A stretch of DNA of 64,000 nucleotides from Polaribacter dokdonensis (lineage in GTDB: Bacteria > Bacteroidota > Bacteroidia > Flavobacteriales > Flavobacteriaceae), in NCBI RefSeq assembly GCF_024362345.1, contig NZ_CP101505.1, positions 268,001-332,000 of the forward strand, read 5' to 3'. The position numbers were made by a program, and so were the translations under genes. How positions within the stretch are numbered: position 1 is the first letter of the stretch; each line of letters starts with the position of its first letter. Under the pieces are notes generated by a model. That model saw only the letters and a program-made list of their open reading frames with translations, was not told the origin of the DNA and made no database searches. Below, piece by piece: positions 1 through 8,177 of this stretch.

Positions 1-230
1 TTGCAATCAAAGCATAAGCAGTAATCTCCTATTCCACCTTGTTCAACTTTGGTTTTTATCTTCTCCTCTTTACTCAAATACTTTTCTACTTTTGTATAAT
101 ATTCAGTCGAATCAACTATTTGGTATCTACTTTTGTTAAAGGCTGACCTTGGAGGAATATGCTCAAAATTTAATTCTTTTTCTTCTTTGCAAATTCTACA
201 AATTCCAATCTTAGTTTTTTTGTTTTTCAT
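1..230 (-). CDS. Partial cassette gene, HNH-like zinc-finger protein (N-terminal 76 residues)
   Basis: An open frame starts with ATG at 228-230 and runs off the left edge. The start MKNKKTKIGICRICKEE has a CxxC pair, followed by an EHIPPRSAFN segment and, near the edge, a second CxxxxC pair. The C-x2-C...EH(V/I)PP arrangement is familiar from HNH-endonuclease-like hypothetical proteins found in phages, defence loci and mobile DNA; the catalytic part would lie outside the window, so nuclease activity is not shown. The start codon sits 26 bases inside the cassette from the core at 249-256, as in the other cassettes. This is the seventh cassette from the recombinase. Confidence 0.6.
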   Translation of the reverse strand, partial: MKNKKTKIGICRICKEEKELNFEHIPPRSAFNKSRYQIVDSTEYYTKVEKYLSKEEKIKTKVEQGGIGDYCLCFDC

Positions 231-247
231 TTTTTTTGGAAAATTGC

Positions 248-444
248 ATGTAACGGTTTGGCTAAGCTTAGTGTGGGATTTGATACTCACAAATTATCGA
301 AGACATCACTTAGCTTAGACTTATTTTATAGTTTTTTCTTTATTGACTTAAAATTAATCAAATAAGTTTAAGCGGACAAAATAAAAAAGCCAAAAACTTC
401 GAGAAAGGAATAAAACCCACATTAAGTTTAGCCGTTGTTGTAGC
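248..444. repeat. attC-like site 6 (divergent, long form)
   Basis: The site runs from a GCATGTAAC box (248-256) to a GTTGTAGC box (437-444). The arms pair as GGCTAAGCTTAGTGTGGG (261-278) with CCCACATTAAGTTTAGCC (416-433), only G-T wobbles interrupting. A second nested arm pairs GCTTAGACTTAT near 313 with ATAAGTTTAAGC near 362. The 3-to-5-base offset between core box and arm matches the other five sites, but the arm sequence, total length (about 197 bp) and apex differ, and the shared hairpin of the other sites is absent. The TAG stop of the cassette gene at 444-446 lies on the core box. Confidence 0.7.
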
Positions 445-1472
445 TAGTTTTTTTTATATTTACCTTCAATTCGACAAAAGGCACCTAACTGCCATTTTTC
501 ATATGAATCATTTGATGAAATCTGAATAGTTTCATTGTTTTTAATAATTTTTAAATGATGCTTTGATTCAAATATTTCTCCTTTGTCAGAGTATACAAAA
601 CCTTCATAAAAATTTTCTTTAGATTTTGATAATATTCCTTCATAATTAGGCATAGCACATTTTTCATTGGAAATCATTAAGTCAATTTTTATACTCTCAT
701 TATCAATGTTAACTATTTCTAAATGATTCGTATGGTTGTAGTAATTTTCAATTTTTGTTGATGGTTCAAAATTCAAATATTCTCTAATGTCATTATATTT
801 ATATTTTAAGTCAATAGCTGGAGTCATATTCTTAATAGCATTTGGAAGAGAACAAGTTTCAATGAATTCTATGTGATTTTCATTTAAAGAAAAATCTCCT
901 AATTCTTCATCATTCTTACATTTATTCAAGTATTCATATACCCAATCATATTCATTTTTGTCAATATCTTTTTGTTTAAAAAGTTCTTTAAGTTGTTTTA
1001 TTTCATTTTCAAATTGTTCATTTTTCTTATTAAGAATTTGTTGCTTAAAGTTATTCAACTTTAAAAGCGAATCAATTTTAATAGGTTTTCCAGTTTTTGT
1101 ATTGTAATTGAAATAGGATTTCCAATAAGTACAATATGCAGCGCATCCTTCAGTTTCAATATTAAATGATATTATATTATTTCTATTGTAAGTTATGTTA
1201 AAATTTATATAACCTATTTGGTCACCAATCCATTGTTTTAAAGTTTTATTTATAGATGAATTAGGAGCTTCATTATAAGTATATTTATTTTTTAAATCGA
1301 AATTTATTAAAGAATCGATTTTCTTATTTCCTGTTTTGAATATTGGGTATATTAATTTGTCTAATGGTGAAGTATTTTGCTCACTTTTATAAAGATGTAA
1401 AGTGTCTATTTTGACTGTTTGAGAAAATGAATTCAAAGAAATTATTAATATAAAGTATAATAGTTTTTTCAT
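444..1472 (-). CDS. Cassette gene: secreted DUF3298/DUF4163-like protein
   Basis: The 342-residue protein has a signal peptide (MKKLLYFILIISLNSFSQ) and is probably exported to the periplasm or surface. The middle contains a WKSYFNYNTKTGKPIKIDSLL segment around residues 117-137 that resembles the 'F-N-x-D-x-x-T-G-K-x-I-x-L-x-D' stretch of DUF4163/DUF3298 proteins (PdaC and RsiV extracellular parts, which bind peptidoglycan or lysozyme). That family match is from memory and moderate. The rest is rich in Lys, Asn and Glu with a probable coiled segment near residues 145-175. The start is 13 bases after the core box at 1485-1492 and the stop lies in the core of the next site, so the gene fills its cassette. 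No promoter of its own is visible. Confidence 0.75.
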   Translation of the reverse strand: MKKLLYFILIISLNSFSQTVKIDTLHLYKSEQNTSPLDKLIYPIFKTGNKKIDSLINFDLKNKYTYNEAPNSSINKTLKQWIGDQIGYINFNITYNRNNIISFNIETEGCAAYCTYWKSYFNYNTKTGKPIKIDSLLKLNNFKQQILNKKNEQFENEIKQLKELFKQKDIDKNEYDWVYEYLNKCKNDEELGDFSLNENHIEFIETCSLPNAIKNMTPAIDLKYKYNDIREYLNFEPSTKIENYYNHTNHLEIVNIDNESIKIDLMISNEKCAMPNYEGILSKSKENFYEGFVYSDKGEIFESKHHLKIIKNNETIQISSNDSYEKWQLGAFCRIEGKYKKN

Positions 1473-1484
1473 TTTTCGTAATTA

Positions 1485-1619
1485 GCTACAACGTGTTTGT
1501 ACAAGGTTAGTTGCGTGGTTTAAGCAATAAATTTACTAAATAATTACTGACAAAGAAAATCCGCGAGGATTTTCGTAAGTAAGCAAAAAGCAAGCAATTA
1601 ATTTTGTACGGTGTTGGGC
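1485..1619. repeat. attC-like recombination site 5
   Basis: The site starts with GCTACAAC (1485-1492) and ends with GTTGGGC (1613-1619). The core boxes are followed by an asymmetric loop (GTGTTT on one side, a 3-base GGT on the other) and a paired arm GTACAAGGTTAGTTGC with GCAATTAATTTTGTAC. The apex is a perfect 8-bp hairpin, GAAAATCC + GCGA + GGATTTTC, at 1555-1574, followed by the conserved CGTAAGTA. Core boxes of one site do not match each other but match the outer boxes of the adjoining cassettes, as expected for attC sites in a linear array. Confidence 0.85.
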
Positions 1620-1623
1620 ACAG

Positions 1624-2391
1624 TTATTTATATTCAATTTTCCTAGTTTTAATATATTCTAGTTTTCCATTTTCAAAAGACTCTCTTTTAATCCAATTTT
1701 TGAATTTGTCAAATTCATATTTATATTCTGTTTTTGAAATTAGCGAATCTTTATCGTTAAATTCCTTTACTGCTTTTAAGATTCCACATTCATATTCATA
1801 TTTAGAATTTATATTTCTTTCGGGTTTTATTAAATCAGATAATCTAGATTCAGTTATTAATTCCTTTTTGTCATATTTACTAATTTCAATTGTATTCGAA
1901 ATTGTATCATTGGATTCAATATCTATATATTGGTTTAGTAATGAAGTTTGTTTTAGGGTCTTGTCAGAATTATATTCATATTTTCCAATTTGTTTCATAT
2001 GAAAAATATCATTTTTAGTTTCTGATTTTGTTTTGAAAACTAAACTGTCTTTATAGAAATAATTGACAGTAAACATTATGCTATCAGTTGAAATTTTTCC
2101 AATTTCTTTTTTTATTTTGTTAAACTCGTCATATATGTATTCAATTTCCATTTGTTCATTCGTAAATAATGGATTTTGAGTTAAATAGGATATTTTGTCA
2201 TTATTATTATATTTATTTTCAATAATTGATACTGTATCTTGAATTTTCTTATTTAAAGAATCTTTCCGAATATTGATAAAATAAATGGTTGTTTTATGAG
2301 CTTTTTTAGTAAGTCCATTATTCAGCAATTTTGGTTGATTACAGCAACCAATTAAGAAAATTGAAAAAAGTAAAATTAGGAGTCTATTCAT
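1624..2391 (-). CDS. Cassette gene: lipoprotein with YD/RHS-like tyrosine repeats
   Basis: The protein has 255 residues and a lipoprotein signal (MNRLLILLFSIFLIGCCNQ, lipobox ending at Cys16). The C-terminal half has short repeated segments such as KYEYNSDKTLKQ, KYEYECGILKAVKEFNDKDSL and YKYEFDKFKNWIKRESFENG. These resemble the degenerate YD-type beta-strand repeats of many Bacteroidota outer-membrane lipoproteins. No catalytic motif is seen and the function is unknown. The start lies about 20 bases inside the cassette and the stop about 5 bases from the start of the next core box, leaving little room for a ribosome-binding site. Confidence 0.8.
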   Translation of the reverse strand: MNRLLILLFSIFLIGCCNQPKLLNNGLTKKAHKTTIYFINIRKDSLNKKIQDTVSIIENKYNNNDKISYLTQNPLFTNEQMEIEYIYDEFNKIKKEIGKISTDSIMFTVNYFYKDSLVFKTKSETKNDIFHMKQIGKYEYNSDKTLKQTSLLNQYIDIESNDTISNTIEISKYDKKELITESRLSDLIKPERNINSKYEYECGILKAVKEFNDKDSLISKTEYKYEFDKFKNWIKRESFENGKLEYIKTRKIEYK

Positions 2392-2405
2392 TCAGTTTTA
2401 ATTGT

Positions 2406-2538
2406 GCCCAACGTGTTTTTATATGGTTTGTTGCGTGGTTTAGCACGTAATTTAGCAAATAAAAACCGATTAGAAAATCCGCGAGGATTTTCGTAAGTAT
2501 GCAAGAAGCCAGCAATAAATTATATAAGGTGTTATAGC
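2406..2538. repeat. attC-like recombination site 4
   Basis: The site runs from GCCCAAC (2406-2412, a perfect RYYYAAC box) to GTTATAGC (2531-2538). The paired arm is TTATATGGTTTGTTGC with GCAATAAATTATATAA, allowing G-T wobbles. The internal loop next to the core is GTGTTT opposite GGT. The apex hairpin GAAAATCC + GCGA + GGATTTTC is at 2473-2492. Length, order of elements and apex match sites 1, 2, 3 and 5. Confidence 0.87.
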
Positions 2539-2544
2539 ACTTTT

Positions 2545-4071
2545 TTAATTATTGTTAATATCATTTAAAGCACCAATAAAACTATTATACTCCGTAGGTT
2601 TTGGAGCTTTGTCATTTACTAAATATCCATTTTTATTAAAAATAATATACCTTGGAATAGAATTAATTTCAAATTTCTTTTTTAGTTCTGAGTTTATAGT
2701 ATCTAGCAAAAGATATTGATTATTTAAAGTTCCAAATTTTTTTAATTCTAAAGTTTTTTGTTTCCATTTTTCTAAATCTGTGTCTATTGATATATATACC
2801 CAATCTAGAAAATAGTTTTCAGCAAACAATCCTTTATTCTTTCCTCCTTTTTTAATGTCATATATGCAAGGTCCACACCAACTTGCCCAGAAATCTATAA
2901 CTCTAATTTTTTCACCAGTTTGTATAAGCATATCGCTAAATGTTATGGTATCTCCTTTTATTGTAATTAATTTCTCATCAAGAACCTCCTTAGGAGGCAA
3001 CTTATTTAACAATTCAATATTTTTTGCTGCCTCATCTATTTTTATTAAATAATTTGAATTAGGGAATAGAACTTTAAACTCTTTAATTGCTTCTTTAATG
3101 TTACTGCTATTTCTAAAAGGGCTTACCTCTATGTATTTAAGAATAGTATTGGCAAGTCCTCCCTCTTGTGCTTTGTTGCTAAATTTATTTAAAAATATTT
3201 CCTTTTCTATTAAAAATTGGGATGGTGAATAAGAGTCTGTTAAATTTTGATTTAAGTGCACATAACTTCTAAGAATACCCAAATAGTTTTTATTCTTCAA
3301 TACCTTTGGATTATTCAATAACTGAAAAGAAAGATTTCCGAAATATGATTCGGAAAATTTTAAAGAAGTTTCTATTCCATATCCTTTAGATACTTGTTCA
3401 AAATGACTTGCATCAAGTTCTTTTACACGACCAGATTTGTCAATTGTTAAATGAAGGATTCTAGAATAATATTCAAATAGAATTCTAGTACGGGTTTTTT
3501 CAATAAAATCTTCGCTAACTTCAGGGTTTTTTAATATGAAGTATTCAAACAAACTGTCTCTTTTTTGAAAAACTTCCCAACATTTATTTTTGTATTGTAA
3601 TAAGTCATTTCTAAATATTGGATATTCATTTAAAGAAATGTCTTTGTAGAGTTTATAATGATTTTTATTAGTTCCAGCTACAGATAACTCTCCATTTTTT
3701 ATTATAATATTTATACTGTCTCCAGGACTAATAAAAATAGGAAGTTCATAAACTTTTTTCATTCCAAACGCAAGGATTTCAATGTATTGAGATTCAAGTA
3801 AATCTTCGGTTTTAAAAAAAATGGAATCTGGGTGATTGAGTACTTTAAAGTTTTTTGATTTTAGTTTTTTTTTAGGAACATCTAAATAAAGAAAATTTAA
3901 ATATTTAAATGCTTGTGGGTCATCTGATTTACCCGTAATTATAGTTTCTAAATGTTGAGTAGAGTCTTTGTTTTCTAAAACCAAATTAGTCGTGCTTGTA
4001 CTCGCTTTTTTACAGCTGACTAAAAATAATATTATAAAGAGTTTAATAATAAGAGGAATTGGATTTTTCAT
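2545..4071 (-). CDS. Cassette gene: TlpA/ResA-type thioredoxin-fold lipoprotein
   Basis: The 508-residue protein has a lipoprotein signal (lipobox ending LFLVSC, Cys20). A long N-terminal region without a recognised domain is followed by a C-terminal thioredoxin fold. The redox motif WCGPC lies near residue 397 within IRVIDFWASWCGPC, with EINSIPRYIIFNKNG carrying the cis-Pro of the fold. The family comprises membrane-anchored periplasmic thiol oxidoreductases of the TlpA/ResA/AhpC group, common in Bacteroidota. Here it is the longest cassette gene (cassette about 1.7 kb), so the array can carry full enzymes. The longer 60-base leader may give it its own expression signal, but none is recognisable. 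Confidence 0.85.
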   Translation of the reverse strand: MKNPIPLIIKLFIILFLVSCKKASTSTTNLVLENKDSTQHLETIITGKSDDPQAFKYLNFLYLDVPKKKLKSKNFKVLNHPDSIFFKTEDLLESQYIEILAFGMKKVYELPIFISPGDSINIIIKNGELSVAGTNKNHYKLYKDISLNEYPIFRNDLLQYKNKCWEVFQKRDSLFEYFILKNPEVSEDFIEKTRTRILFEYYSRILHLTIDKSGRVKELDASHFEQVSKGYGIETSLKFSESYFGNLSFQLLNNPKVLKNKNYLGILRSYVHLNQNLTDSYSPSQFLIEKEIFLNKFSNKAQEGGLANTILKYIEVSPFRNSSNIKEAIKEFKVLFPNSNYLIKIDEAAKNIELLNKLPPKEVLDEKLITIKGDTITFSDMLIQTGEKIRVIDFWASWCGPCIYDIKKGGKNKGLFAENYFLDWVYISIDTDLEKWKQKTLELKKFGTLNNQYLLLDTINSELKKKFEINSIPRYIIFNKNGYLVNDKAPKPTEYNSFIGALNDINNN

Positions 4072-4123
4072 TATGTTTAAATTTTAGTCAACCTATTTCA
4101 GGAAAGTACAAGGCTCATAATGT

Positions 4124-4257
4124 GCTATAACGTGTTTGTGTAGGAAAAGTTACGTGGTTTAAGAACTAAAGTTAGTAAATAAAACACAAACCAAGAAAAT
4201 CCGCGAGGATTTTCGTAAGTAGGCTTTTACCAGTAATTTTTTTTACACGTTGTTAGC
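4124..4257. repeat. attC-like recombination site 3
   Basis: The site runs from GCTATAAC (4124-4131; the longer box GTGCTATAAC begins at 4122) to GTTAGC (4252-4257). The arm is GTGTAGGAAAAGTTAC with GTAATTTTTTTTACAC, with an internal loop GTGTTT opposite GTT. The apex hairpin GAAAATCC + GCGA + GGATTTTC is at 4195-4214. The stop codon of the neighbouring cassette gene (4243-4245) lies within the site, so the last residues of that protein are encoded by the recombination site. Confidence 0.86.
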
Positions 4258-4845
4258 AAAAGTTTTTTCTTTTTTCAATTCATCTATACTTTGATAACCT
4301 TTAAAAATCATAAACAAAGCATATAAGTGAACTCCAAAACTTAACCAATCCTGAATACTTAATAAAATCAAAGCATCTATACCATATATTATCATTCCAA
4401 TTATGAATGCTGGTTTACTCAAATTTTTCGAAAAATGCCAAATGACAGCAAAAGTTCCAGAAATAAAAAGGCTAATTATAACTCCTAACAAATTAAAGTT
4501 TCCAAATGCGGCAAGATAAATTCCTTCAAATACTTGAGTTATTCCAAGTCCAAATATGAATGAAACTTGTCCTCCGAAATAGAGTATTAAAGTATTTATA
4601 GCAGATAAACCAAAAATCCATAAAAACCATTGCGATCCATTGTTCAGCTTTGCAACACTTTCAACTTGTTCAATAGTTGGTATTTCTTCCAATTCTTTTT
4701 TCTTTATTGGGTCTTCTTTAAAACTCTCACAGGTTTCTTGAAAACTTGCAATTTCATTTGTTAAATTACAGATTAATCCTTTTTTCAGGTCCATTTTTCT
4801 ATTCAAACATATTTTGCAATAGGATAAATGTTCTTCTCTTGTCAT
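4243..4845 (-). CDS. Cassette gene: membrane protein with N-terminal four-cysteine motif
   Basis: The protein has 200 residues. The first 40 hold CKIC, a Cys near residue 26 and a Cys near residue 39 (YCKICLNRKMDLKKGLICNL), which suggests a small zinc-binding module. It is followed by four hydrophobic segments between about residues 72 and 185. I recall similar N-termini in unnamed flavobacterial proteins; function is unknown. The C-terminus (KTFANNV) is encoded inside attC-like site 3, showing gene and recombination site travel together. The start is 32 bases after the core at 4872-4877. The nested frame at 4799-5062 is not a gene. Confidence 0.8.
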   Translation of the reverse strand: MTREEHLSYCKICLNRKMDLKKGLICNLTNEIASFQETCESFKEDPIKKKELEEIPTIEQVESVAKLNNGSQWFLWIFGLSAINTLILYFGGQVSFIFGLGITQVFEGIYLAAFGNFNLLGVIISLFISGTFAVIWHFSKNLSKPAFIIGMIIYGIDALILLSIQDWLSFGVHLYALFMIFKGYQSIDELKKEKTFANNV

Positions 4846-4871
4846 AGTTTTTATTTGTGTAGTTAATTTTT

Positions 4872-5005
4872 GCTAACGTGATTGTATAAGCTTTGTTGCG
4901 TGTTTTAAGCACTAAAGTTAGCAAATAAAACACAGATAGAAAGTCCGCGAGGACTTTCGTAAGTAAGCTAGAACTAGCAATTAATTTTATACGGTGTTGT
5001 AAACA
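4872..5005. repeat. attC-like recombination site 2
   Basis: The site runs from GCTAAC (4872-4877) to GTTGTAAACA (4996-5005). The arm GTATAAGCTTTGTTGC pairs with GCAATTAATTTTATAC. The internal loop is GTGATT opposite GGT. The apex is GAAAGTCC + GCGA + GGACTTTC at 4939-4958; compared with sites 3-5 an A-T pair has become G-C on both sides of the stem, a compensatory change that argues the fold itself is selected. Confidence 0.86.
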
Positions 5006-5009
5006 GTTT

Positions 5010-5600
5010 TTATCCATCATAACCAAACCATTCGTTCTCACACTTAACTTTTTTCGATTCAATTTCCTTGAATTTATTTTCCTTTAAGTCAATAAACCAA
5101 GTTTTTAATATTTTATCAAAAAATTCAACATCCTCATTCTCTACCAAACTGAAAACCATTCTTTCATTTGGATTTTCAATTAATTCACATTGAGTTAAAG
5201 CGACGTATTGGTCAGAATTTTTAAATATCAAATTCACTTCGTCAAGAATTGAATAGTTAGGTTTAGGTGATGAATTTTTGATTATTTTTTCTAAAATCAA
5301 CACTTTTAGACTGTCTTTTTGAATGTAAACCAAAGCCTTATCTGAATTTCCTAAAACTTGCGCACTTACTTTTTCAAATCCATTATACTTTTCTAAATCC
5401 GTTATATTTCGGAAAGTAACATTTTCAGAGTCATTTTTTGAGATAGGATTGGTATCAGATACAGATTTAAATTCCGTTTCTGATTTTTCTTTTTCAAGTT
5501 CAATTTTTGAATCATTTTTTGATTCCGATTCTTTCTTTTCTTTTTGACAACTAAATGTCAAAATCAGAACTAAAATTATTATGATTTTCTCGGTTCTCAT
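5010..5600 (-). CDS. Cassette gene: lipoprotein of unknown function
   Basis: The 196-residue protein has a lipoprotein signal (MRTEKIIIILVLILTFSC, Cys18) followed by a Lys/Glu/Ser-rich linker up to about residue 60. The remaining domain is predicted mixed alpha/beta, with no motif I recognise. The ATG is only about a dozen bases after the core box at 5605-5614, so the mRNA leader is essentially the recombination site; no ribosome-binding site can fit except within the core. This is typical of short-leader integron cassettes and normal for Bacteroidota initiation. Confidence 0.78.
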   Translation of the reverse strand: MRTEKIIIILVLILTFSCQKEKKESESKNDSKIELEKEKSETEFKSVSDTNPISKNDSENVTFRNITDLEKYNGFEKVSAQVLGNSDKALVYIQKDSLKVLILEKIIKNSSPKPNYSILDEVNLIFKNSDQYVALTQCELIENPNERMVFSLVENEDVEFFDKILKTWFIDLKENKFKEIESKKVKCENEWFGYDG

Positions 5601-5604
5601 AAAT

Positions 5605-5744
5605 TGTTTACAACGTTATTGTATATGGTTTGTTGCGTGTTTCAAGCACCTAATTTAGTAAATAATTACCGACCAAGAAAGTCCGAGAGGACTTTCGTAA
5701 GTATGCGAGAAGCCAGCAACAAATTATATACGGTGTTAGCCACA
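5605..5744. repeat. attC-like recombination site 1 (nearest the recombinase)
   Basis: The site runs from TGTTTACAAC (5605-5614) to GTTAGCCACA (5735-5744). The arm GTATATGGTTTGTTGC pairs with GCAACAAATTATATAC, and the internal loop is GTTATT opposite GGT. The apex is GAAAGTCC + GAGA + GGACTTTC at 5677-5696: the stem carries the same compensated pair as site 2, and the loop has changed from GCGA to GAGA, both of the GNRA form. The right box is identical in complement to the attI-side box at 6256-6265. Confidence 0.87.
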
Positions 5745-5775
5745 GATGTATTCTCTCAATATTCAAGTCAGAATT

Positions 5776-6231
5776 TTATTCAATTCTATTTTTCCAATAG
5801 TTGTAAATTCTATTTATTTCAAAAGGGTCTATAGATGATTTATCTTTATACTCATACCATGATAAATTATTCAATGAGTATTCAGTAAAATTCCATTCTT
5901 CATTTTCTTTGTTTTCATTAAAATGTTGTTTCCAAAAAAAGACTTCAGGTTCCCATATTTTAGTCAGTATCATATGAATAACTACAGATTTTTCAGTTGT
6001 TTTTAATTCTTCAAGTAAATCCGTAGAACAACTTTTACCTATTTCTATTAGTTCTTTTGAATCATCATTAAGAATCAAGGCAGTTCCGTAATTAATTTGG
6101 AAATAAAATGAACTCCATGACAGGTTTTGGATAAGTTCTTTAACTTTAGATTCATTCTGTGAGAACGAATTAAAGTTTATAATCAATAATAAGAATAAAA
6201 CGATTTCTTTTTTATTTTCTAACATTATCAT
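5776..6231 (-). CDS. Cassette gene: secreted protein of unknown function (first cassette)
   Basis: The 151-residue protein has a signal peptide (cleavage likely after FNSFSQ near residue 25). The start could be the first ATG or the ATG two codons later. The mature part is rich in Trp, Asn and Glu, with a WEPEVFFWKQHF segment near residues 93-104; no family is recognised. It is the cassette next to the attI-like junction and so, by integron logic, the most recently acquired. Its start is 34 bases from the core and 70 bases beyond the recombinase stop codon, so it could be read from the recombinase transcript. Confidence 0.75.
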   Translation of the reverse strand: MIMLENKKEIVLFLLLIINFNSFSQNESKVKELIQNLSWSSFYFQINYGTALILNDDSKELIEIGKSCSTDLLEELKTTEKSVVIHMILTKIWEPEVFFWKQHFNENKENEEWNFTEYSLNNLSWYEYKDKSSIDPFEINRIYNYWKNRIE

Positions 6232-6255
6232 GATTTATCTGTCAAATCTGTAATT

Positions 6256-6300
6256 TGTGGCTAACTGGTTATATCTTTATAATATACGTCGTTTTTAGGG
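6256..6300 (-). other. attI-like junction
   Basis: The box TGTGGCTAAC (6256-6265) is the exact complement of GTTAGCCACA at the far end of the first cassette. Beyond it, toward the recombinase, the attC-type palindrome is absent, so the platform side looks like a simple (attI-type) site. On the minus strand the crossover would be G^TTAGCC. The insertion point lies about 40 bases from the recombinase stop codon, so the site is at the 3' end of the recombinase gene, not upstream of its start as in class 1 integrons. Confidence 0.7.
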
Positions 6301-6324
6301 TTTATTTTCCGGATATCGACGTAT
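6284..6324. repeat. Inverted repeat at recombinase end
   Basis: ATACGTCG (6284-6291) and CGACGTAT (6317-6324) form an 8-bp inverted repeat with a 25-base spacer that includes the recombinase stop codon. It may be part of the attI recognition region or a weak plus-strand terminator, since TTTTTAT follows. Either role is an inference. Confidence 0.45.
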
Positions 6325-7486
6325 TTTTATCGTTGTTATCAGAAATAAATGTAGTACTTTTTTGTGAATTTTTATATTGAGCTACAATTAAATCTAATGG
6401 GTTATTTATCTTTTTTACAGCATCACTCTGCACATGAGTATATACCATTGTTGTTTCTGGTTTACTATGCCCCAATAAGGCTTGTATGTATCTTATATCT
6501 GTACCACTCTCTAATAAATGTGTGGCATAACTATGTCTTAATGTATGTGGTGTAACCGCCTTTTGTATACCTGCTCTTTCTACACTTCTTTTTAAAAAAC
6601 TTCGAACTGATGTTGCTGCATAAGGTATATGCTTGCTATCATTTTCTATTAAATACTGTTGTGGAGTATATGTGGTTATATAATTATGCAACATAGGTAA
6701 TAAACTATTTGCCATGGGTACATACCTGTCTTTTCTTCCTTTACCCATACTTACTTTTAACATCTGCCTTTCAAAATCTAAATCTTTAAGTTTTAGATTT
6801 AAAAGTTCTCCAATACGTAAACCAGATGAATACAATAAAGCAATACAAACACGGTGCTTTAAGTTTTTTGTGACCTGTATTAAACGAATCACTTCTTCTT
6901 TAGACAATACACTAGGTAATTTTTTATCCTTTCTTGGTGCAATACTTTTAAAATCTAATTCAAAATTAGCTTTAGTATATATTAAAAAATGTTTTAAAGC
7001 ACTTATCAATTGTCTATGAGTGCTAATAGATGGATTCTTTTTAATAAAATCACTCTCTATATATCGTTCAATTTCTCTAACATTATCTATCGTTTCTTTT
7101 TGATGATAGAGTATAAAATCTGCCACTAAATAGGTATAAGTTTTTAAAGTACTAGCACTATAACGCTTTCCTTTTAAGTAAGTGTAAAATCCATTTAATA
7201 AGCTTCTTTCTTTTTCTTTTAATTTAATTTTTAAAGTGGTAGTAGGGGTAAACTGATCAAATTTAACATTGGTAATTTTAACTAACTTTTCTTTAATTAG
7301 TAGATAGTTTTCTTCCGTAAAAGGTAAATGCCAACAAGCTAGCTGTTTACTCCATCTTGCATTAGGTAATTTTTTTACAATGTTTATTAAAGGAGTATGA
7401 TAATCAAAATATAAACAAAGGCTTTGTTTACCTCTATGTTTTTTAGAGATTACTGTAATAGGAGGGTATGTACTAATCTTTTTCAA
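6302..7486 (-). CDS. Tyrosine recombinase, integron-integrase-like
   Basis: The protein has 394 residues. Residues 1-75 form an N-terminal domain with the pattern ARWSKQLACWHLPF, frequent in flavobacterial integrases; 88-180 is a SAM-like core-binding domain; 190-365 is the catalytic domain. All catalytic residues are visible: R224 (SGLRIGE), K249 (MGKGRKDR), H314 and R317 (PHTLRHSYATH), H340 (LLGHS) and Y349 (MVYTHV). The end KKINNPLDL resembles the SPLD end of IntI proteins. The stretch between K249 and H314 is short and seems to lack the roughly 20-residue insertion that IntI uses to grip attC extrahelical bases. The gene is intact and co-directional with the cassettes. It is best seen as the array's recombinase; XerC/D-type housekeeping is unlikely given the context. 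Confidence 0.9.
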   Translation of the reverse strand: MKKISTYPPITVISKKHRGKQSLCLYFDYHTPLINIVKKLPNARWSKQLACWHLPFTEENYLLIKEKLVKITNVKFDQFTPTTTLKIKLKEKERSLLNGFYTYLKGKRYSASTLKTYTYLVADFILYHQKETIDNVREIERYIESDFIKKNPSISTHRQLISALKHFLIYTKANFELDFKSIAPRKDKKLPSVLSKEEVIRLIQVTKNLKHRVCIALLYSSGLRIGELLNLKLKDLDFERQMLKVSMGKGRKDRYVPMANSLLPMLHNYITTYTPQQYLIENDSKHIPYAATSVRSFLKRSVERAGIQKAVTPHTLRHSYATHLLESGTDIRYIQALLGHSKPETTMVYTHVQSDAVKKINNPLDLIVAQYKNSQKSTTFISDNNDKNTSISGK

Positions 7487-7781: not shown

Positions 7782-8177
7782 ATGTCATTACGTTATAGAA
7801 TAACTAAAAGAAATAACTCTTTAAAAAACAATACAGAGCAATATATTTTACAAGCTGTTAATACAGGTACTATAGAATTAGATTACATTAGTAAACTAAT
7901 TAGTGAAGAGTGCAGCCTACATGAAGTTGATGTAAAAGCAGTTTTAATTGCTTTGGGGTTAAAACTAGAATTTTTTCTTACAGATGGTAAAATAGTAGAA
8001 TTAGGTGATATTGGCCGTTTTAAAATGGGTTTTAACGGTACTGCAAGTAACGACCCTAATACTTTAACGCCTAAACGTAACATTAAAAAATACCATATAA
8101 ACTATCAACCTTCTAAGAAATTAAAGCAACGTCTAAAAGCAGGTGTAGATACTTATAAAGAGGGTAGAAGGGGTTAA
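7782..8177 (+). CDS. HU/IHF-like DNA-binding protein
   Basis: The 131-residue protein matches the Bacteroidota HU-related group (TIGR01201/'HU-HIG' type). A helical N-terminal half (YISKLISEECSLHEVDVKAVLIALG) is followed by the beta-arm region LGDIGRFKMGFNG, typical of HU DNA-binding arms, then a basic tail (KKYHINYQPSKKLKQRLKAG). Such proteins bend or wrap DNA. It lies divergent from the recombinase and is followed by its own terminator. Because integrase family reactions often need a DNA-bending helper, a role as accessory factor for cassette recombination is possible, but the same family is also common as ordinary chromosomal protein. Confidence 0.85.
   Translation: MSLRYRITKRNNSLKNNTEQYILQAVNTGTIELDYISKLISEECSLHEVDVKAVLIALGLKLEFFLTDGKIVELGDIGRFKMGFNGTASNDPNTLTPKRNIKKYHINYQPSKKLKQRLKAGVDTYKEGRRG

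What the first reader, a model, noticed from the sequence alone, without database searches (positions are those of the whole stretch)
1..7486. Integron-like cassette system in a flavobacterium, with a recombinase outside the typical IntI form
Seven one-gene cassettes, six palindromic sites and a tyrosine recombinase form one unit. The bases at the start of each complete cassette are the exact reverse complement of the core box at its other end (six of six pairs, 7-10 bases each), and all cores have GTT on the minus strand. That is the footprint of G^TT crossover between attC-like sites. Integron families are well known in Proteobacteria and some spirochaetes; I know of no described system in Bacteroidota with these sites and this recombinase type.
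Basis: partly seen in the sequence, partly recalled or inferred. Interest (0 to 1): 0.95.

Follow-up and report, generated by a model that had tools for sequence, protein, structure and literature searches.

The report
Integron without the integron integrase
The chromosome of what is likely a marine flavobacterium carries a 34-kilobase row of 29 gene cassettes separated by sites predicted to fold into hairpins, beside a recombinase that lacks the hallmark domain of integron integrases and that likely captures and shuffles the cassettes, so there may be a second way to run one of the main gene-collecting machines of bacteria.

Summary
The six sites end a 29-site array (34 kb, G000:C1:239806-274265) that runs out of the window's left edge. 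In 28 of 29 cassettes the start is the reverse complement of the cassette's own far core (>=6 of 7 bases beyond GTT; 0 of 100,000 shuffles match). The closest relative fetched (recombinase 92% identical) is alike up to G^TT beside the recombinase, then carries other cassettes. Sites and recombinase recur in the genus and the class. The sites behave like attC: the bottom strand folds better in 188 of 188 selected sites, with 964 G.T pairs on the bottom strand and 5 on the top. Two hallmarks of integrons fail together. The recombinase lacks the IntI-specific domain, and no IntI passes the cut-off in 58 genomes of the genus. And 162 of 188 sites lack the extrahelical bases that this domain docks. 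I read it as an integron-type cassette system run by a likely sister family of IntI. That it recombines, and that this enzyme does it, is inferred.

The parts
6302..7486 (-). tyrosine recombinase, 394 aa, TTG start; R224, K249, H314, R317, H340 and Y349 invariant in an alignment of 51; residues 1 to about 90 an extra N-terminal domain
6263..6301 (-). attI-like region: ATATAACCAG^TT, core AAC (plus strand) at 6263-6265; homology to the closest relative ends here
5776..6231 (-). gene of cassette 1, 151 aa, no Pfam match
5612..5737 (-). attC-like site 1
5010..5600 (-). gene of cassette 2, 196 aa, likely lipoprotein (signal read by eye)
4875..4998 (-). attC-like site 2
4243..4845 (-). gene of cassette 3, 200 aa, no Pfam match
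4129..4254 (-). attC-like site 3; overlaps the end of the cassette 3 gene
2545..4071 (-). gene of cassette 4, 508 aa, thioredoxin-like
2410..2533 (-). attC-like site 4
1624..2391 (-). gene of cassette 5, 255 aa, no Pfam match
1490..1615 (-). attC-like site 5
444..1472 (-). gene of cassette 6, 342 aa, no Pfam match over a cut-off
252..439 (-). attC-like site 6, longer class (about 190 nt; not among the R1 matches at E <= 1e-3)
1..290 (-). gene of cassette 7, cut by the window edge (274 aa in L008, HNH match below its cut-off); the array goes on for 28 kb to the left with 23 more sites

Best explanation
This is a 29-cassette integron-type array whose neighbouring tyrosine recombinase, a likely sister of the integron integrases without their special hairpin-reading domain, likely inserts and removes the cassettes by recombining folded single-stranded sites at G^TT. 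Shown by sequence: the tandem array with the longest frame of every cassette in one direction; cassette ends that are complementary to each other and not to their neighbours; sites whose computed fold is better on the bottom strand; an attI-like motif after the recombinase; homology breaks at (C)G^TT; absence of the IntI-specific domain; absence of extrahelical bases in most sites. Inferred: a cassette circle presents its site as a bottom-strand hairpin; the recombinase joins it to the duplex attI-like site ATATAACNNG^TT; a single strand exchange is resolved by replication, as in integrons; and strand choice is read from an asymmetric 3-nt bulge and from G.T pairs that exist only on the bottom strand, in place of the extrahelical bases that IntI docks.
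For: Own-end complementarity: 28 of 29 own cassettes; 130 of 150 distinct consecutive pairs from 23 loci, mostly of the genus, where 2.9% of other pairings reach the same level; 32 of 47 distinct pairs under 3 kb in class-level arrays, other pairings 2.1%.

Bottom strand: folds lower in 188 of 188 selected sites, and G.T pairs number 964 on the bottom strand against 5 on the top. A transcript would need the opposite bias.

Breakpoints: the closest relative is alike up to ...ATATAACCAG and then diverges. Among 60 pairs of copies in 14 cassette families identity is 0.998 from GTT on, 0.43-0.45 two and three bases before it and 0.52 at -60 to -31.

No IntI domain: 53-54 residues between the conserved boxes in 28 relatives of the recombinase, 95 in 19 IntI, 55 and 57 in two XerA.

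No extrahelical base in the L stem of 162 of 188 selected sites, and a 3-nt asymmetric bulge in 176. A canonical integron of this phylum shows two single-base bulges in its attC fold (two near-identical sites).
Against: No recombination was observed. The sites analysed are related and not independent. The 188 sites were picked from 260 (own-end match >=6 of 7, length <=135, distinct), which drops duplicates, long sites and sites with no neighbour read. The lower bottom-strand energy follows in part from the G.T count. In other genera it holds for 56 of 67 sites.

20 consecutive pairs and 15 of 47 do not reach 6 of 7; 11 of the 20 lie more than 1.5 kb apart and may hide a missed site.

In the class the link to the recombinase is moderate: 34 of 47 site-bearing genomes have it at 1e-40, as do 161 of 348 others (Fisher p = 1e-3). 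13 site-bearing genomes lack it at that threshold, and one of them (G199) has a canonical IntI. Only 16 of 31 recombinase loci read with about 1.5 kb of flank (L070 with 10 kb) hold an R1 match, and 16 of 44 loci lack the attI-like motif. The arrays that I fetched were picked because site and recombinase were both in the tables.

The sister relation to IntI rests on one careful tree with few outgroups and some long branches (97/90) and one quick tree (SH-aLRT 88). The control for extrahelical bases is one canonical integron.
Confidence: 0.85

Rival explanations
1. The sites are ordinary attC sites moved by a canonical IntI acting in trans (plasmid or phage), and the neighbouring recombinase is a bystander; the array would be a cluster of attC sites lacking an integrase.
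For: Ten of the 11 genus genomes without a recombinase frame of >=340 aa still have 1 to 18 R1 matches. 13 of 47 site-bearing class genomes lack the recombinase at 1e-40, one of them with a canonical IntI, G199. Phage P12002L carries sites that model R1 finds, and PMC9892861 reports that IntI1 recombined one of two P12002L sites tested, with no recombinants from its top strand; I could not map that site.
Against: 0 of 58 genus genomes have an IntI over the cut-off (in three of them only 31 candidates were scored). The recombinase sits at the head of all 16 arrays fetched with it, is often followed by an attI-like motif (28 of 44), and genomes without its frame have fewer sites. Most sites lack extrahelical bases and the GTTRRRY box (13 of 151 fit).
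Confidence: 0.08
2. The recombinase joins the cassettes as ordinary duplex DNA, like a phage integrase building a tandem row at one site; the palindromes only present two inverted recombinase boxes.
For: The recombinase resembles XerA, a duplex recombinase, and lacks the domain credited with single-strand activity. The attI-like site is not a long palindrome (read by eye).
Against: The bias of G.T over A.C pairs to one strand (964 to 5; 436 to 10 in the L stem) has no evident meaning for duplex DNA. The arms pair well beyond two core boxes.
Confidence: 0.06
3. The repeats are RNA elements or terminators that happen to separate lipoprotein and orphan genes, in a cluster built by homologous recombination between repeats.
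For: They lie after genes, form hairpins and are repeated many times.
Against: Own-end complementarity is not expected this way. The fold is favoured on the strand opposite to the transcript. No Rfam family matches the first 8 kb of the window at E <= 1. Copies break at the core and not within the repeat.
Confidence: 0.01

Closest known systems
Chromosomal integrons (IntI, attI, attC), for example the Vibrio cholerae superintegron
   Same: Tandem cassettes in one direction, palindromic sites folding better as the bottom strand, an unpaired spacer between R and L boxes, G^TT crossover, an attI-like site beside a tyrosine recombinase.
   Different: The recombinase lacks the IntI-specific domain (I2 helix) and has about 90 extra N-terminal residues; most sites lack extrahelical bases; the R box is GTTR and rarely GTTRRRY; strand asymmetry lies in G.T pairs and a 3-nt bulge.
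Reverse chromosomal integrons of Treponema (co-directional integrase; recalled, only the listing of PMC3607928 seen)
   Same: Recombinase and cassettes point the same way.
   Different: From memory those have a canonical IntI; not compared here.
Canonical integrons in other classes of GTDB Bacteroidota (IntI over the cut-off in 105 of 395 genomes sampled)
   Same: Phylum; G483 has two attC sites near its IntI.
   Different: IntI has 95 residues between the boxes (19 compared); the G483 attC has single-base bulges; model R1 finds no site up to E = 10 in 20 IntI loci of a few kb each.
XerA and XerC/XerD recombinases (5hxy, 4a8e, 1a0p)
   Same: XerA is the best sequence and structure match; the protein passes the NF040815 cut-off (229.2 against 220 bits).
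   Different: Heads a cassette array; extra N-terminal domain; falls with IntI and apart from the Xer proteins in the tree (97/90).
attC clusters in phages, including Polaribacter phage P12002L (PMC9892861)
   Same: P12002L carries R1 sites, among them 54- and 56-nt ones around DNA methyltransferase gp54.
   Different: No integrase annotated there and no long array; divergent directions.

Membership tests
Integron (IntI type) | IntI with its unique additional domain around patch III | tested here: not met
   53-54 residues between boxes in 28 relatives of the recombinase, 95 in 19 IntI; TIGR02249 210 bits, cut-off 265, matched in two pieces; 0 of 58 genus genomes over the cut-off. Definition read in passages of PMC9668308 and PMC7790495.
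Integron (IntI type) | attC: imperfect palindrome with R and L boxes, unpaired spacer and variable terminal part | tested here: met
   Pairing in 25 sites; 3-nt asymmetric spacer in 176 of 188 selected sites.
Integron (IntI type) | Two to three extrahelical bases in the L stem | tested here: not met
   None in 162 of 188 selected sites, one in 23, two or more in 3; control: two bulges in the attC of one canonical integron, G483. Definition from passages of PMC2727003.
Integron (IntI type) | R box GTTRRRY | tested here: not met
   13 of 151 distinct cassette starts fit; GTTR fits 145.
Integron (IntI type) | Crossover between G and TT, cassette ends complementary to each other | tested here: met
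   28 of 29 own cassettes; breaks at (C)G^TT. In silico only.
Integron (IntI type) | Bottom strand is the folding strand | tested here: met
   Lower computed energy in 188 of 188 selected sites; 56 of 67 in other genera.
Integron (IntI type) | attI beside the integrase gene | tested here: met
   Present here; TATAAM..GTT in 28 of 44 loci, 81 of 2000 random windows; absent in 16.
Integron (IntI type) | Promoter Pc reading into the cassettes | tested here: inconclusive
   TAnnTTTG (Bacteroidetes -7 box, recalled) before attI in 7 of 28, 92 of 2000 random windows; two of the seven are the same array (L048, L076), and the own locus is not among them.
Integron (IntI type) | Demonstrated integration and excision of single-stranded cassettes | not testable with these tools
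   Needs a bench assay.
XerA / XerCD dimer resolvase | Passes the NF040815 equivalog cut-off | tested here: met
   229.2 bits, cut-off 220.
XerA / XerCD dimer resolvase | Housekeeping gene present in every genome | tested here: not met
   28 of 36 genus genomes have a match at 1e-40, some broken; the own genome has two other recombinase genes with strong PF00589 matches, C1:584512 and C1:1210682, which fall with Xer-like proteins in the tree.
XerA / XerCD dimer resolvase | Acts at a dif site | not tested
   No dif site was searched for.

The most novel reading that the evidence does not exclude
A second kind of integron: the sister family of IntI runs cassette capture through single-stranded hairpins without the I2 helix, reading strand polarity from G.T pairs and an asymmetric bulge instead of extrahelical bases. 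If so, hairpin recombination is older than I2 or arose without it, and Bacteroidia hold a large pool of cassettes that IntI-based tools would not call integrons.
Probability: 0.6. Interest if true: 0.95.

Novelty: new variant of a known kind. Interest (0 to 1): 0.88.

Why it matters
The accepted account is that integrons arose when a Xer-like recombinase gained the I2 helix, which docks extrahelical bases, lets IntI use single-stranded sites and impedes the second strand exchange; [quoted passage not shown] Here a likely sister family has no such domain, and most of its sites lack the bases it docks, yet it heads long cassette arrays whose sites are shaped for bottom-strand folding. That makes the question 'is I2 needed for hairpin recombination?' directly testable in nature and gives a possible outgroup to IntI. 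It also points to a large cassette pool: no cassette was shared between the 14 genomes compared, and those of this array include a GmrSD-type restriction gene, a protein with similarity to Ppl and a CDI immunity gene.

Tried and rejected
Considered and dropped: RNA element or terminator (no Rfam match; wrong strand bias). Cassettes shared between genomes as proof of transfer: among 231 cassettes of 14 genomes (blastn, E <= 1e-20, 60% of the shorter one) the only shared pair is an IS3-like element (named by eye) sitting in a site, so no transfer between genomes is shown. A claim that co-directional recombinase and cassettes are unique: dropped, because the canonical IntI of G483 also points towards its sites. 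A claim that the long R stem is unique: dropped for the same reason. Gain and loss between strains of one species: not possible, the genome scan gave one near relative, whose array differs.

Led nowhere: phage database with the window part of the array (no match); canonical attC sites by pattern in five of six IntI loci, and direct repeats in four of them; careful 101-row tree not finished in time (quick tree used); N-terminal domain (no Pfam family over its cut-off there; weak DUF5710, E 0.037-0.14, in three of seven proteins; barely tested by the fold search).

Papers: PMC9892861, passages and section 13 read; PMC9668308, PMC9024848, PMC8618304, PMC2727003, PMC7790495, PMC4792948, PMC8352920 and PMC8371274, passages only; PMC3607928, listing only. 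Ten searches of the held library listed no paper that I recognised as describing this system; for only the first 15, 15 and 10 of 63, 36 and 14 papers were shown. The library holds no preprints and few subscription papers, so absence from print is not shown.

Corrections: my notebook says 28 of 34 own-genome R1 hits lie in the array; the table shows 26 in the array (25 of them training sites) and 8 elsewhere. One search had one site in the wrong register and two incomplete; one search replaces it. In one search I called 28 proteins 'array' recombinases; they are the relatives less three (one cut, two broken), and an R1 match nearby is shown for 16 of those 31 loci.


Full report
What is there. 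The window is G000:C1:268001-332000 of a single-contig 3.09-Mb genome. The finding's six sites and seven genes are the right-hand end of an array that runs on to the left: 29 sites from 239806 to 273737 and an attI-like core at 274263-274265, about 34 kb, cassettes on the minus strand, with the recombinase (window 6302-7486, minus) at the head. In each of the 29 cassettes the longest reading frame is in the sense direction; 24 cassettes hold one main frame and five hold two or three. Of 26 array proteins searched against Pfam, 7 match a family over its cut-off: a thioredoxin-like protein, a GmrSD-type restriction enzyme, a TonB-C protein, a bacterial PH-domain protein, a MutS-like ATPase, a CDI immunity protein and a DUF6438 protein. 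Of ten searched against PADLOC one is similar to Ppl (64 bits).

Cassette ends. If cassettes move as circles cut at G^TT, the start of a cassette must pair with the core at its own far end and not with its neighbour's. That is so in 28 of 29 cassettes (>=6 of 7 bases beyond GTT, 22 perfect, one with 5). Other pairings reach this in 49 of 812 cases, the two halves of one linear site in 3 of 29, and 0 of 100,000 shuffles reach the observed sum. After these ten bases comes a mismatch in 29 of 29, with A on the start side. Over 23 loci the test gives 130 of 150 distinct pairs, against 2.9% of other pairings and 18 of 246 same-site pairs. Over arrays of other genera it gives 32 of 47 against 2.1%. 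The mismatch is present in 130 of 130 and 32 of 32 of the pairs that reach 6 of 7. Of the 20 misses, 11 span more than 1.5 kb and may hide a missed site.

The fold. On the gene strand the site reads AAC-ACC-GTATAT...GC (left arm) and GC...ATATAC-6 nt-GTT (right arm), with a variable middle that often holds a second hairpin. I joined each site to the start of its own cassette and folded both strands with DNA parameters: the bottom strand is lower in 188 of 188 (mean -25.9 against -21.0 kcal/mol). The 188 were chosen from 260 hits (own-end match, length up to 135, distinct), are related to one another, and the energy gap follows partly from the next count. In the arms there are 964 A.C oppositions on the gene strand, which are G.T pairs on the bottom strand, and 5 of the reverse. 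Counted over the L stem alone it is 436 to 10, with the wobble at L position 18 in 185 of 188 and at position 13 in 159. An RNA would show the opposite bias. In other genera the bottom strand is lower in 56 of 67 sites (site alone).

No extrahelical bases. PMC2727003 describes three features of attC: extrahelical bases, an unpaired central spacer and a variable terminal structure, and gives the first extrahelical base the main role in strand choice (passages). Here 162 of 188 sites have no extra base in the L stem, 23 have one and 3 have two or more; 176 have a 3-nt asymmetry in the spacer. As a control, the attC of a canonical integron in the same phylum (G483, two nearly identical sites) folds with two single-base bulges. 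In the five other canonical loci I found no site by pattern, so the control is thin. The R box differs too: 145 of 151 distinct starts fit GTTR but only 13 fit GTTRRRY.

Neighbourhood and distribution. Model R1 (25 own sites) finds 34 places in the own genome: 26 in the array, 25 of them training sites, and 8 elsewhere. It has matches in 35 of 36 genus genomes and in 4 of 23 others of the order (at most 59 candidates scored per genome), and in 47 of 395 class genomes from 40 of 196 genera (8 candidates per genome). In all 16 arrays (15 genomes, picked because both parts showed in the tables) that I fetched with their recombinase the sites lie downstream of it on its strand, as in 10 of 10 class genomes where both lie on one contig within about 25 kb in the printed tables. 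With only about 1.5 kb of flank in most, 16 of 31 recombinase loci hold an R1 match. Genus genomes with a recombinase frame of >=340 aa have a median of 34 matches (n = 25), those without 4 (n = 11, range 0-18). In the class, 34 of 47 site-bearing genomes and 161 of 348 others have the recombinase (p = 1e-3). No canonical IntI passes the cut-off in 58 genus genomes (candidates capped at 31 in three). In the phylum 105 of 395 do (5 candidates scored per genome), but only one of these, G199, is listed as of this class.

The attI-like site. Between the recombinase and the first cassette stands ATATAACNNG^TT. TATAAM..GTT occurs within 420 nt after the recombinase in 28 of 44 loci (L048 and L076 are one array) and in 81 of 2000 random windows; 16 loci lack it. 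In the closest relative fetched, an uncultured Polaribacter (contig NZ_CANMBY010000004.1, recombinase 92% identical), the DNA is about 91% identical through the recombinase up to ...ATATAACCAG and then unrelated. Apart from repeats of the sites themselves, its array shares nothing with this one that I found but one 242-bp piece at 73% in the most distal cassette. A TAnnTTTG box lies just before attI in 7 of 28 loci, the own locus not among them (92 of 2000 random windows), a hint of a promoter that reads into the cassettes.

Movement of cassettes. Within genomes G013, G035 and G009 there are 14 families of near-identical cassettes in different contexts (60 pairs compared): identity is 0.998 from GTT on, 0.43-0.45 two and three bases before it, 0.93 at the C just before the G, 0.52 at -60 to -31. 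So copies begin at (C)G^TT. Between genomes no cassette was found shared among 231.

How it most likely works. Shown: structure of array, sites, breakpoints, missing domain. Inferred: the recombinase pairs the bottom-strand hairpin of a cassette with its duplex attI-like site, exchanges one strand at G^TT, and replication resolves the junction; strand choice comes from the bulge and the G.T pairs. The asymmetry matters because IntI is said to use its I2 helix to dock extrahelical bases and to impede the second exchange (PMC7790495, passages). An enzyme without I2 next to sites without those bases is consistent with a different solution of the same problem.

Known or new. It works like an integron. 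By the definition in PMC9668308 (passages) it is not a member of the IntI integrons, since the defining domain was tested and is missing. Prior work touches it at two points: integrons are listed for Bacteroidota (PMC8618304; PMC9024848), and attC sites were found in Polaribacter phage P12002L, one of two tested being recombined by IntI1, with none from its top strand (PMC9892861). That phage holds R1 sites, but I could not tell which were tested. Ten searches of the held library listed no description of this system that I recognised.

Noticed in passing
G000:C1:1002157-1026378, 1692041-1697700, 2137855, 2792698: Eight R1 matches outside the main array, two groups of three within 25 kb and 6 kb; possibly small secondary arrays or single cassettes.
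   Followed up: no
L078 and L092 (G009, G033): An IS3-like transposase element (named by eye), about 92% alike, sits in the hairpin of a site in two genomes, apparently at the same place, as if it targets these sites.
   Followed up: partly
window 252-439; G000:C1:245783, 267276: A second, longer site class (about 190 nt, inner motif GTGTGGG) with the same core and end pairing.
   Followed up: partly
L126 (Polaribacter phage P12002L) 38036-38089, 38880-38935, 32224-32280: Short sites of 54-57 nt; the first two flank DNA methyltransferase gp54.
   Followed up: partly
L127 718-841 (Polaribacter phage Freya_2): One R1 hit of 42.5 bits beside small genes near the end of the record.
   Followed up: no
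G001:C1:2233248-2234378 and 2343133-2344263: Two recombinase genes about 110 kb apart, each heading its own array, with the same attI-like sequence.
   Followed up: partly
L080, L081 (G013): Dense arrays with up to five identical or near-identical copies of short cassettes.
   Followed up: partly
G013, G794, G805: Dozens of tyrosine-recombinase matches per genome in the TIGR02249 search (38, 30 and 53), many in a 128-aa frame in G794.
   Followed up: no
window 7219-7486, minus strand (residues 1-90 of the recombinase): Confidently predicted beta-alpha domain with W52 invariant and W45 nearly so; no library names it.
   Followed up: partly
window 7782-8177: HU-like DNA-binding protein (HU-HIG) next to the recombinase, opposite strand; conservation of the pairing not checked.
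   Followed up: no
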